DNA from: Bugulina stolonifera
Lineage: Eukaryota; Bryozoa; Gymnolaemata; Cheilostomatida; Bugulidae
DNA: 64,000 nucleotides
Direction: 5' to 3'
Assembly: GCA_935421135.1 (NCBI GenBank)
Contig: OW285190.1
Location: 6,830,501-6,894,500, forward strand
Below the pieces are notes generated by a model. It did not search any database, was not told the origin of the DNA, and saw nothing but the letters and a program-made list of their open reading frames with translations. Both the position numbers and the translations under genes were made by a program. Positions 11,368 to 22,017 of the stretch are shown here, one piece after another. Each line of letters opens with the position of its first letter. Position 1 is the stretch's first letter.

Positions 11368-14300
11368 CTATTCTGTGATTCCTTTAGCCTTTAAATCTTC
11401 AAGAACCCTGTCTAAATAGTCAGGGTCAGGGTAACCATACGGCCCGGGTTGTGAACTTGTTTTATGATGAATATCATTCCAGACTACAGTGTTATTTGCT
11501 CCAGAAGTAACAGACTGACCCACAGTGAATATCAGCCTCTGATCGAATGCTTTAGACAGCAGCTTGAGGACCAGTTGACCTTTGGTATTATTAGGTAGGA
11601 ACGCTGTTCGCCTCGTCCCTGAATAACGCACTCCAGGAGATGGGTGTTCAGGCTACAATTGCACAAAAACAGCATTGTGTGTATTACAATGTATATTTGT
11701 GTCATCCTCAAGTATTCAAGGGCCCATAGATTATATAATACAAGATTTTAAACCAAAGCATTGAAAGCAAATAGCAGGATTCCAGGAGTCTAATACCCCC
11801 AAACAGAGATTAATACCCCGCCCAAATAAAATATTGCATAATTCAGTGTAGTAACCTTGTCTAGGCCTACAGCCCAGAATAGCTTGTGAATTATTACCAA
11901 ATTGGTTGAAGTTCTTTTCTCAATAAATTATAAAAATTGTTGGGAAATAAAGATAACTCCAAAATAACAAATGTGGTTAGAAGGTTTTCATGAGAAGACA
12001 GCTATTCCTAAACTATGAGACCTTCCGATTTCTGCAGCAAGTCTAGAGCTCAACAATAAGCATGTAGACCTACACTGAGCTGTGAACGTGACTGAAGACT
12101 GGTTCAACCACCATTTCTTTTACATAAAACAAACAAATTATAGGTAAATGGTGGTACTGCACAACTTACCCCTTGTATACCAGACGGGATATCATAGTCT
12201 ATCACAATTGTACCAACACCAGGGTATCCAGGAAGGGGATTAGGCATAATCTGTTTCGTCATCCGTCCTCCTTTTGGTTGCTTTCCCTCCGCTACAGCAA
12301 ATGGAACTCTACAGATAGGACAGAGATGAGACTTGCTGGTAGACTTCACCTGGTCCAGACAATCTTTACAGAACTTGTGAGAACAGGGTAGAGTCTGAGG
12401 ATTGTCCAGCTGATCCATACAGATAGGACATTCATCATCCTTCGGACCTCCAGAATCTGCTCCAACTTTACTTTCAGTGGAAGAACCACTGGGTCCACCA
12501 CCCAAATCTGCACCTGAACCACTTCTAAAGTCACTGGAACCACCATATGCTCCTGCACCAACATTGGAACCACTTGAACCACCATATGCTCCTGCACCAC
12601 CAAAAGAACCACCGAAACCACCATATGCTCCTGCACCAACATTGGAACTACTGGAACCACCATATGCTCCTGCACCAACATTGGAACTACTGGAACCACC
12701 ATATGCTCCTGCACCACCAAAGGAACCACCGAACCCACCATACGCTCCTGCACCACTAAAAGAACCACTGAAACCATTCATGTCTCCCCCAGTATTAGGC
12801 CTGTTAACCATCCCTTTACGACCGGAAGGTATAAGTGGCAAGGGTGAAGGTCCACTCTTCGTATCCTTGTTTACCTACAATTTTACACGTGGGAAAATAA
12901 TTATGGTGACCACTAGATGTATACAATAGCACCATGGACTATATATTATATATGTACACTGAACTGCAACTGAACTGCATCGATGAGGTGTATATATGCA
13001 GATTGAGTGTGGATATTATGTACATGTATCTATACAATTGTGTATATACTACATAATAGATACTTGCACACATAGGCCTACATATAAATAAACCAGTAAC
13101 CACCGGTTTAAACTAAAATACCTACACAATTTCTTGGAAACACCAATACTATAAAGTTATGTAATCATTGTATTTACGTTATGCTGACTCTCAGTCTATG
13201 CACCATCGATGGTTAGTACAGACTGGAGCTGCATTACATGTACATTGGGAATGTTGTGACTCGGCATGTGATCATTACAAATAGACTAGGTGAATGTGCA
13301 CCTGAACAATGTCTGTATTGAGTCAGCAAATCAGCAAAAAACCAAAAACTTGCTCTAGGCCAATTATGGAATGTTTACCAAAACCCGACAAGATTGTTTC
13401 CTCCAATCAATGGCGAGGGTATCGCTCAGAAAGTAGGATAAGCAGAACTCCAGAATTTGTTGAGTGAATGCACCTGATCAAGTCAACACAGTCAGAGTCC
13501 CAAACACGTTTTAGCTAAATAGTACTTGCCATGTTAACATTCTGACAAAAGTAGAAAAAGAAGAGCTGAAAGAATCATGCCATATATGGGTACAATTCCA
13601 AAATTCGTACTTATGGCCTTTGGGACCAATTATTGTTTCCTAATAGCACCATGGTGGTACGGTTAACTAACCTTTCCACGGCCTTTAGACCTACTACCGC
13701 TAGTACCAGTGCTATGTACACCAGTGGGAAGAGAGCTATGCCAACTACTTGCATTTCTAGCACTTCCTGCTCGGCTAGATGCTCCAGAGGAAGTGGCACC
13801 TCGCGCTGATTGCTGATTAGTACTTGAATCGTGTCTGGTGGAAGCCATAGACTTGGTCTTGGTTGATAATATGGTCATTTCTTGCTGCATGAATTCAACT
13901 GTGACTTTATCATTACATACAAACAGTATATCTGTGAGCGAAGTACGAGGATGTGCAGAAAGAAAGCCGCAGACGGCCTTCCAGTAATCTTCTATGCACT
14001 CTTTTAATGGACAGTCCAGGGCTCCTGAAGATTAAGAAACCGCTGCTGTTGACCCAGAAATATTTGAACATTAGTTTGAGAATATCCTAGAAAAGACTAG
14101 ATCATTGGCTAAGGGAAATAATTCCAAATTCGAAATCTTTGGATATGTCTGTGTGAAAACAACTTTCGAAAGTCACGATAGTTTAAGGCAGGGAATCACA
14201 TCTTTGAAGTATTTATATTTTGCTAGTAAACGTTTAACCAGAGAATATCTATGTTTACATGAGCAAAACACATCTAAGGTGATCTAACATAATCAATGTC

Positions 14301-20300: not shown

Positions 20301-22017
20301 ATTACTGTCTTGAATGTCAGGGATTGTGACCTGATTGCCAGGGGGTGTGTCTTGATTGCTAGCTGAAGCACCTGAACTGTCAGTTGACGTGGACAGATCA
20401 GTCGGTGTGGTCTGAATACCTGTTGATGTGGTCTGAATGTCAATGGGCGTGGTTTGTACGCTAGTCGACTTTAAGTTTACCAATTGATCAACCTTAATTT
20501 TCTTAGGGGGAGAAGGTAGTTGTTCATCAAACTTCTTATCAACCTTCTTGTCAATCCCTTCTTCCAACTGCCTTAGGAACTTGTTAGCCAAATTCAGTTG
20601 AAACAGGTATCCAGTCAGGCAGTACCTATATAGTAATCAAAGAGCAACATGACAATACAGAAATACCCATTCTGCTGTAATCATACTCTTAATTTGAACA
20701 AAGACCTAATCACGATAGTTACAAGTGTACATATACATGTAAGTCACATCAAATTGTTATGATCAGAAATCTTCGATGCAAACGAAACCACTAATAACCG
20801 ATTTCGACAATGTAACATATTTTTGCTATTTCGCACAAGTCCAAATGGCTTCCTTCTCTACCACTTCACTTATACAATTCACCATTATTCATTGAGAAAG
20901 ATGACCATGCAGTTGGGTTTGGCTACACATCAGATGGTTTATAACATAGATATCAGCTGCAAAGGTAAACAAACCTTTCTCCCGAACCTTGAGTGGAGGG
21001 CCTCTCGTCAAGAGTGATGGCAGCGTGTTCATACAGACCTTTCCTAATAACTGAAACTTGATAGTAACTGAATAACCGCTCCAGTGGGCGCTGAGGCAAG
21101 ACCACGTTCAGCTGTCCTATATACTGTTGAAACAAGTAACTTCCATGACATATAGGTATATGAAATGCAAGTCACAATATAAGCACATAAAACAAAGTAC
21201 ATGGTACAGTAAGCATTTCTGGCGATTGCATCTCACAACTTGAGCATTCGGTATGTTCTCATTTACAAGTGCAGTTGGCCTTGAGTTGAACTGCAAGGAG
21301 TAAGCGTACCAAAACTCCCCGATCATTATATCCAATCTATTATCTAACCACCAAAAGGAAACAAATTAACTTTAAATGGAAGTTCTTGCAGATATAACCT
21401 CTTGAGTGACATGGAAAAGTACATGTAAATTGCTACAGACATGAGTACATCATACAGTACCTGTGTCTCCTGATATCGGCGGATTTGTAGAGTTGGATCA
21501 GTCTTTTTCTCAATCAAGTTGTCGACCACGTCTGTAAGAGAAACCTATCAAATTGAGATCCGAAAATTGACCTCTAGGTTCACAGATGTTCAGAAACAAA
21601 AACAAATTATCAAAAGTAATCATATGCATACAAGCAATAAGCATCAGTGTCAACTTAAATTATCCATTTTAATAGAAGTAGCCGCTATTAGTAATACACA
21701 AAACATCTACAATCATGAGCACCATGTTAGCTAGGGAAAATCATAAACAAAAAGGTACCTGGATCACAATATTCTGGGTCGAACCAAACTAAAGCTTGAT
21801 CAGTGGCACCGTCCCAAGGAGTTAGACAGCCTAACACCTCTCCTCCGCCATTGCTCGCAGAGAAAAAATAACCCTGTAATTGGCTTTGCGTGGTATATTT
21901 TTCAGGATCAAAGTTCACAACAACAGCTATGAAGGCGTCAGTTGCAGAATTATTAGCCTGTTCGGGTTGATTCTGTTTTTGGTTCAAACCACTGTCAGAA
22001 AATGACCCAGAAGCCAT
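11368..22017 (-). CDS. PARP14/DTX3L-like macro-RING-Deltex E3 ligase, 14 exons
   Basis: Exons, 5' to 3': 22017-21759, 21531-21461, 21290-21237, 21123-20975, 20625-19562, 18212-18049, 17684-17533, 17414-17366, 16833-16614, 15723-15612, 14818-14649, 14024-13672, 12874-12170, 11652-11368. All 13 junctions are GT-AG and in phase; total 3807 nt, 1268 aa. The ATG at 22017 opens MASGSF. Order: RRM-like N-terminus with a [13 protein letters not shown] segment like the KLQxYFQ...GGGEC motif of DTX3L/PARP14 (residues about 25-175); acidic Ser/Thr/Asp-rich disorder (178-510); KH-like modules (515-690); macro domain (about 700-870) with [16 protein letters not shown] and FPLIGAGAL; Ser/Gly linker with six GAGAYGG units; RING at 1088-1127; DTC to the end. 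In vertebrates DTX3L (RING-DTC) binds PARP9 (macro) and modifies ubiquitin with ADP-ribose; here both parts are one chain. No ART domain is seen. The exon structure is my reconstruction. Confidence 0.85.
12540..12775 (-). repeat. Coding Gly-rich repeats (GAGAYGG) in the macro-RING linker
   Basis: Six copies of GAGAYGG, separated by GGSFG or SSSSNV spacers, sit just before the RING finger. Units of 36 to 39 bp are nearly identical in DNA. The Tyr-Gly-rich composition resembles prion-like low-complexity domains of RNA-binding proteins; that comparison is inference. Confidence 0.85.

What the first reader, a model, noticed from the sequence alone, without database searches (positions are those of the whole stretch)
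11368..22017. One-chain macro-RING-Deltex ligase resembling a fused PARP9-DTX3L
Hand splicing gives 14 phase-consistent exons encoding a PARP14/DTX3L-like N-terminus, KH-like modules, a macro domain, RING and DTC in one 1268-aa chain. In vertebrates the macro part (PARP9) and the RING-DTC part (DTX3L) are separate, partnered proteins. A joined form would suggest an ancestral or convergent state of this ADP-ribose/ubiquitin module.
Basis: partly seen in the sequence, partly recalled or inferred. Interest (0 to 1): 0.82.

Follow-up and report, generated by a model that had tools for sequence, protein, structure and literature searches.

The report
Bryozoan single-chain macro-RING-Deltex ubiquitin ligase
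A moss-animal gene appears to encode in one protein an ADP-ribose-binding module and a ubiquitin ligase that in jawed vertebrates sit on two partner proteins, and database proteins from many other invertebrates have the same layout, so the joined form may be the older one.

Summary
On the minus strand, 12 (not 14) GT-AG exons between 22017 and 11368 join in phase into a 1220-aa (not 1268-aa) chain with one macro domain, RING and Deltex C-terminal (DTC) domain. The genome is that of the bryozoan Bugulina stolonifera. It is not a fused PARP9-DTX3L: it has no ART domain and one macro, and PARP9 is reported only from jawed vertebrates. It is a DTX3L-type ligase carrying its own macro domain. The layout is not unique: 40 of 256 database proteins fetched here have it, from sponges to tunicates; none bears a vertebrate name. 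In 17 of them the pre-macro region is profile-homologous to vertebrate DTX3L KH modules. Best reading: the one-chain form is ancestral; vertebrate DTX3L lost its macro, and PARP9 supplies macros in trans. Here the macro lacks the hydrolase signature (likely a reader) and the catalytic DTC Glu is Asp. A tandem macro-less RING-DTC gene lies 2.4 kb downstream, with a gene-conversion-like RING tract. No transcript was available and no other bryozoan one-chain protein was seen, so a two-gene reading stays open.

The parts
21759..22017 (-). Exon 1 (aa 1-86), start codon at 22017; most of the RRM-like segment
   Evidence: in-frame stops upstream of the ATG
21461..21531 (-). Exon 2 (aa 87-110)
20975..21123 (-). 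Exon 3 (aa 111-159)
19562..20625 (-). Exon 4 (aa 160-514), long, Ser/Thr/Asp-rich, probably disordered
   Evidence: inside a 395-aa open frame
18049..18218 (-). Exon 5 (aa 515-571), KH-like candidate region
   Evidence: KH not shown by sequence
17533..17684 (-). Exon 6 (aa 572-621), KH-like candidate region
   Evidence: KH not shown by sequence
16614..16786 (-). Exon 7 (aa 622-679), start of macro domain
15612..15723 (-). Exon 8 (aa 680-716), macro domain
14649..14818 (-). Exon 9 (aa 717-773), macro domain
   Evidence: PF01661 hit at G000:C4:6845135-6845290
13672..14024 (-). Exon 10 (aa 774-891), end of macro domain and start of Ser/Gly linker
12170..12874 (-). Exon 11 (aa 892-1126), Gly-rich linker, RING, start of DTC
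11368..11652 (-). Exon 12 (aa 1127-1220 plus TAG), rest of DTC
21527..21918 (-). RRM-like segment, aa 34-88 (spans intron 1)
   Evidence: RRM_PARP14_1, 13.7 bits, below cut-off; profile match
13867..16686 (-). Macro domain envelope, aa 656-826 (spans introns 7-9)
   Evidence: hydrolase loop signature absent
12532..12776 (-). Tandem 39-nt repeat, 6.3 copies, coding the Gly/Ala/Tyr-rich linker
12302..12439 (-). RING finger, aa 1037-1082
11377..12286 (-). DTC domain, aa 1088-1218 (spans intron 11); catalytic His kept, catalytic Glu replaced by Asp
12875..13671 (-). Intron 10 between macro and RING exons; no AATAAA or ATTAAA on this strand (so too in 5 other introns of 11), 18 stops if retained
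10843..10905 (-). Two AATAAA motifs (first bases 10905 and 10843) downstream of the stop, candidate polyadenylation signals
8641..8994 (-). Gene 2, first coding exon: RING and start of DTC, no macro
7453..8319 (-). Gene 2, last exon: DTC plus about 190-aa acidic repeat tail (15.3 copies of a 21-nt unit at 7618-7938)
12264..12463 (-). RING tract, 187 of 200 nt identical to gene 2 at 8934-8735, with sharp edges: gene-conversion-like

Best explanation
This is a DTX3/DTX3L-type ubiquitin ligase that carries a macro domain in the same chain: RRM-like N-terminus, long disordered stretch, a pre-macro region that is KH in relatives, one macro domain, a Gly-rich flexible linker, RING, DTC. Proposed working: a separate macroPARP writes mono-ADP-ribose on a target. 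The macro domain (here probably a pure reader) and the DTC both bind ADP-ribose, which holds the target. The RING brings E2-ubiquitin, and the DTC passes ubiquitin to the ADP-ribose or a nearby lysine. The joined layout is probably ancestral in animals. Vertebrate DTX3L is the same protein after loss of the macro domain, and PARP9, a jawed-vertebrate derivative of PARP14, supplies macro domains in trans. Shown: domain content, in-phase exons, spread of the layout among database proteins, KH homology in relatives, residues kept and lost. Inferred: single transcript, all biochemical activity, loss in vertebrates.
Against: No transcript evidence. The only bryozoan relatives seen (Watersipora P0121, 294 aa; Bugula P0122, 245 aa) are short RING-DTC proteins without macro; no bryozoan protein of any kind is among the 120 listed of 191, which took proteins of about 671-2135 aa. 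KH is not detectable in the window chain itself. The catalytic Glu of the DTC is Asp. Deep branches of the trees are mostly weak; the macro label needs 6 or 8 changes; the macro tree is unresolved, with the window on a long branch of 1.86. Absence of macro in vertebrate DTX3L was judged from listed database hits, not from whole genomes. Precomputed Pfam calls no RING in 2 of the 40 (P0069, P0079).
Confidence: 0.7

Rival explanations
1. Two neighbouring genes in the window: an RRM-KH-macro gene (exons 1-10) and a short RING-DTC gene (exons 11-12, possible start at Met 913, base 12811), joined by hand splicing only.
For: The donor of exon 10 is followed within 9 bases by an in-frame stop (GTTAGTTAA; sequence). 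Exon 11 has an in-frame ATG that would give a 308-aa RING-DTC protein, close to Watersipora's 294 aa. A standalone RING-DTC gene exists next door. No bryozoan one-chain protein is in the listed hits (120 of 191).
Against: Intron 10 is only 797 bases and has no AATAAA/ATTAAA, while two AATAAA lie after exon 12 (weak, 6 of 11 introns lack these motifs). Splice sites fit and phase 0 is kept. The same macro-then-RING-DTC order is annotated as one protein in many other phyla, with a long disordered linker in the modelled Amphimedon protein.
Confidence: 0.2
2. Recurrent independent fusion: macro domains were joined to RING-DTC several times, so the bryozoan form is convergent, not ancestral.
For: The macro label changes 6 times on the RING-DTC tree and 8 on the DTC tree; supported branches force at least 3. 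Domain makeup around the core varies (TRIM-like front in coral P0015; two or three macros in bivalves). The macro tree does not resolve one clade.
Against: Same order in 40 of 40, and the KH module upstream of the macro in 17 of them is shared with vertebrate DTX3L. Changes can equally be losses; the first-branching rows are macro-bearing.
Confidence: 0.25
3. A literal fusion of PARP9 with DTX3L, as the title suggests.
For: Macro plus RING-DTC in one chain.
Against: No ART domain and one macro instead of two; no PARP-family match in the window; PARP9 reported only in jawed vertebrates (PMC10221186, passages). The macro tree neither supports nor firmly excludes a PARP9 link.
Confidence: 0.03

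Closest known systems
Vertebrate DTX3L (BBAP)
   Same: RING and DTC at the C-terminus; weak RRM-like start; pre-macro region of 17 relatives homologous to DTX3L KH modules
   Different: DTX3L has no macro domain between KH and RING (turtle P0102); here there is one, plus a long low-complexity stretch and a Gly-rich repeat linker
PARP9
   Same: Macro domain working beside RING-DTC
   Different: PARP9 has two macro domains and an inactive ART, and is a separate protein (PMC13224862, passages); no ART is found here
PARP14 (macroPARPs)
   Same: RRM, KH, then macro in the N-terminal part (PARP14 layout from PMC13224862, passages); macro of the Amphimedon relative is closest in fold to PARP14 macro 1
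   Different: No ART or WWE here; RING-DTC instead; the relatives' KH profile matched PARP14 tiles at 18.4% at most
Uncharacterised invertebrate macro-RING-DTC proteins (for example Amphimedon P0034, Branchiostoma P0013, Crassostrea P0019, Ciona P0029)
   Same: Same core order in one chain
   Different: 26 of the 40 keep at least one macro with a hydrolase-like signature; the window's macro does not
Short RING-DTC proteins: Watersipora P0121, Bugula P0122 and gene 2 of this window
   Same: Closest RING-DTC sequences; the Asp in place of Glu is shared
   Different: No macro domain

Membership tests
DTX3/DTX3L-type Deltex ligase | C-terminal RING followed by DTC | tested here: met
   both over curated cut-offs
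DTX3/DTX3L-type Deltex ligase | No WWE domains (unlike DTX1/2/4) | tested here: met
   no WWE listed at E up to 1
DTX3/DTX3L-type Deltex ligase | Catalytic His of the DTC (DTX3L H707, DTX2 H582) | tested here: met
   His in 241 of 245 aligned rows, both window genes included
DTX3/DTX3L-type Deltex ligase | Catalytic Glu of the DTC (DTX3L E733, DTX2 E608) | tested here: not met
   Asp in both window genes, both bryozoan relatives and 3 more; Asp in 7, Glu in 235 of 245 rows. A conservative change, so activity is open
Vertebrate DTX3L in the strict sense | RRM_PARP14-like N-terminus | tested here: inconclusive
   weak profile support, Pfam below cut-off
Vertebrate DTX3L in the strict sense | KH_DTX3L modules | tested here: inconclusive
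   not detectable in the window chain, clear as a profile of 17 relatives
Vertebrate DTX3L in the strict sense | No macro domain in the chain | tested here: not met
   Macro 65.4 bits against a cut-off of 22
PARP9 | Two macro domains | tested here: not met
   one stretch
PARP9 | C-terminal ART-like domain | tested here: not met
   none listed at E up to 1; no PF00644 hit in the window
PARP14 | Three macro domains, WWE and ART in one chain | tested here: not met
One-chain macro-RING-DTC group | Macro domain N-terminal to RING-DTC in one polypeptide | tested here: inconclusive
   In-phase exons support it; transcript not available
Active MacroD/PARP14-macro-1-type hydrolase | Loop 1 Asn/Ser and Gly, loop 2 hydrophobic then aromatic residue (criteria from PMC10221186 passages, coded by me) | tested here: not met
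   the aromatic position is Leu (the other coded positions pass); the second Asn of loop 1 is Asp

The most novel reading that the evidence does not exclude
Animals ancestrally had a single-chain ADP-ribose reader/eraser and ADP-ribose-ubiquitin ligase (RRM-KH-macro-RING-DTC). In the vertebrate line DTX3L lost its macro domain, and PARP9 arose from PARP14 to put macro domains back in trans, so the PARP9-DTX3L complex is a split version of one ancestral protein. Bugulina shows both states side by side: a one-chain gene and a macro-less tandem copy.
Probability: 0.5. Interest if true: 0.75.

Novelty: new variant of a known kind. Interest (0 to 1): 0.6.

Why it matters
The PARP9-DTX3L-PARP14 system is studied as an interferon-induced antiviral module, and papers remark that PARP9 plus DTX3L together look like PARP14 with extra ubiquitin modules (PMC13224862 and PMC11251020, passages). 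A covalent macro-RING-DTC form across invertebrates would explain that likeness and give a natural cis version to compare with the vertebrate trans complex. It makes a testable claim about how reader, eraser and ubiquitin ligase are meant to work together, in animals reported to have no PARP9. In 26 of 41 such proteins (the window among the 15 without) a macro keeps a hydrolase-like signature, so ligase and eraser may share one chain.

Tried and rejected
Sponge origin: my first guess from Amphimedon hits (notes record the change); rejected by a Hox cluster, bryozoan RING-DTC relatives and the length of contig C5, 20,271,823, which equals the scaffold N50 printed for Bugulina stolonifera (PMC10213821, passages). 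Alternative last exon from gene 2: exon 10 ends in phase 0 and the acceptor-like site just before gene 2's ATG gives another frame (read by eye), so I treat gene 2 as separate. First KH/RRM profile test was run with a flag that I think forced a global mode; it found only RING-DTC (RRM 0.9%) and was redone in local mode. KH profile of relatives against PARP14 tiles gave 18.4% at most, with an ART control at 5.4%, so the KH modules are not shown to be shared with PARP14. A PDB sequence search with the window's KH-candidate region gave nothing useful (one hit, E 0.19). VIA-align rows cover mainly the macro (387-579), so the KH blocks of the model were not tested by fold. Sister grouping of the two window genes on the RING-DTC tree is inflated by the shared RING tract; on the DTC alone it is 97/54. 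The bacterial promoter/terminator scan of intron 10 is not informative for a eukaryote.

Rows dropped before counts: P0240 (weak RING-like hit, no PF18102) from the one-chain count; Bugula P0122 (98-aa hit) from the tree; Sycon from the tree (long branch). The trees used 56 rows each, chosen by me from the 245 with a RING-DTC match, plus human DTX1 and DTX2. The KH profile used 17 of the 27 one-chain rows of alignment A1, picked after looking at the cut pieces; the 10 left out had linker-like, too short, too long or macro-containing pieces.
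Full report
What is in the sequence. The minus strand from 22017 to 11368 was spliced anew by reading splice sites and joining exons in a script. Twelve exons, all with GT...AG introns, join in phase into 3663 nt with one terminal stop, giving 1220 residues. Each of the 11 introns holds 5 to 36 in-frame stops if retained. Pfam finds Macro at 671-784 (5.7e-18), RING at 1038-1080 (best 1.1e-9) and DTC at 1088-1218 (2.7e-55), and lists no PARP, WWE or second macro at E up to 1.

Which animal. The nearest RING-DTC proteins are from the bryozoans Watersipora and Bugula, and the four bryozoan rows form one clade (97/91) on the DTC tree. Genome size (234,951,659 bases in 27 contigs) is close to, and the length of contig C5 (20,271,823) equal to, figures printed for Bugulina stolonifera: 234,982,697 bp in 30 scaffolds, N50 20,271,823 (PMC10213821, passages seen).

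One chain or two genes. For one chain: phase is kept across the 797-base intron between macro and RING, no AATAAA or ATTAAA lies in it, and two AATAAA lie after the stop codon. The motif argument is weak, since 6 of the 11 introns lack these motifs. Against: an in-frame stop follows the exon 10 donor within nine bases, exon 11 has an in-frame ATG (Met 913, a 308-aa product), and the two bryozoan relatives found are short RING-DTC proteins. No transcript could be checked here. I put one chain at about 0.8.

The layout elsewhere. Of the 120 listed hits (191 in all) to residues 510-1220, 36 carry both the macro and DTC families; one more is in the listing (120 of 173 listed) and three more (all 18 listed). 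With HMMs built here, 40 of 256 database proteins plus the window have both, leaving out P0240, and in all 41 the macro precedes the RING-DTC match; precomputed Pfam calls no RING in two of the 40, P0069 and P0079. Names given by the sources include Amphimedon and Oscarella (sponges), Montipora (coral), Littorina, Babylonia, Crassostrea, Mytilus, Pecten, Argopecten and Pinctada (molluscs), Dimorphilus (annelid), Lingula (brachiopod), Anneissia and Antedon (crinoids), Ptychodera (hemichordate), Branchiostoma and Ciona; P0050 bears a tag that I recall as Sycon's; seven have no name. None of the 40 has a vertebrate name. Pfam run on 11 of them in full (P0034, P0099, P0052, P0050, P0015, P0007, P0027, P0029; P0013, P0014, P0008) gives macro, RING, DTC in that order in each; a turtle DTX3L has RRM, alpha/beta, KH, RING and DTC but no macro. 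Macro-less invertebrate RING-DTC proteins exist too (starfish, hemichordates, a soft coral, bryozoans).

Trees. The RING-DTC tree (58 rows) and the DTC tree (58 rows), rooted on human DTX1 and DTX2, put macro-bearing bivalve proteins first and spread macro-less forms among macro-bearing ones, but most deep branches are weak; the label needs 6 and 8 changes, at least 3 forced by supported branches. The macro-domain tree (60 rows) is unresolved, with a long window branch (1.86) near later macros of bivalves and the Dimorphilus macro (84/90, open); I take no origin from it. Ancestral presence with losses is therefore favoured by layout and KH homology more than by the trees.

Residues. The DTC catalytic His is present; the catalytic Glu (DTX2 E608, DTX3L E733; PMC10810221, passages) is Asp in both window genes, both bryozoan relatives and three other proteins, 7 of 245 rows in all, against Glu in 235. 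The macro fails the hydrolase signature that I coded from PMC10221186 (passages): loop 2 reads G-A-L where an aromatic is expected. By the same rule 26 of 41 one-chain proteins keep at least one signature macro. So the window's macro is more likely a reader; others may be erasers joined to the ligase.

Neighbour gene. A second RING-DTC gene (CDS 8994-8641 and 8319-7453, 406 aa, no macro, acidic repeat tail) lies downstream in tandem. These two are the only DTC loci found in the genome (4 exon matches, all in the window). Between them, synonymous differences are 0.07-0.25 per site in three RING windows and 0.49-0.96 in six DTC windows, and a RING tract is 187 of 200 nt identical with sharp edges: an old duplication with a later gene-conversion-like event.

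Partners. The same genome has macro-domain and PARP-catalytic exons close together on contigs C2, C3 and C5. On C5 they lie within about 4 kb on one strand (open frames printed), in line with a macroPARP writer; gene structure there was not worked out.

Literature. Nine searches on the subject and passages of PMC13224862, PMC11251048, PMC10810221, PMC11080071, PMC10221186, PMC11251020, PMC10450202 and PMC12687431 showed no description of a one-chain macro-RING-DTC protein. I saw listings and passages, not whole texts, and subscription journals are mostly missing from the library. PMC10221186 reports PARP9 in jawed vertebrates but not in lamprey or non-vertebrates, and its search dropped sequences lacking a complete PARP domain, which would have removed these proteins.

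Verdict. The layout is already in databases without a function that I found described, so I file it as a new variant of a known kind.

Noticed in passing
window 12463-12264 and 8934-8735, minus strand: RING segments of the two tandem ligase genes are 187 of 200 nt identical with sharp edges while the DTC parts differ strongly at synonymous sites, as after gene conversion.
   Followed up: partly
window 7618-7938: Gene 2 carries after its DTC a coding array of 15.3 copies of a 21-nt unit giving an Asp/Thr/Ser/His-rich acidic tail.
   Followed up: no
window 38684-43505, plus strand: Three open frames with KH_1 domains, probably exons of a separate multi-KH RNA-binding gene.
   Followed up: no
window 55658-57010, minus strand: Open frame of 451 aa with a fucosyltransferase (Glyco_transf_10) domain.
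   Followed up: no
window 63107-64000, minus strand: Fragment of a reverse transcriptase of the RVT_2 family (Copia-type, recalled), reaching the window end.
   Followed up: no
window 4951-6045, plus strand: Ankyrin-repeat open frame of 365 aa beyond gene 2 on the other strand.
   Followed up: no
window 422-2881, plus strand: Open frame of 820 aa with a weak MFS transporter match (24.5 bits, below the cut-off of 33.4).
   Followed up: no
proteins P0015 (Montipora), P0022 and P0129 (hemichordates): RING-DTC proteins with B-box domains as in TRIM proteins; the coral one also has a filamin repeat, a KH_DTX3L-like stretch below cut-off and a macro.
   Followed up: no
protein P0123 (unnamed source): A 326-aa protein that by eye holds two DTC-like units in tandem.
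   Followed up: no
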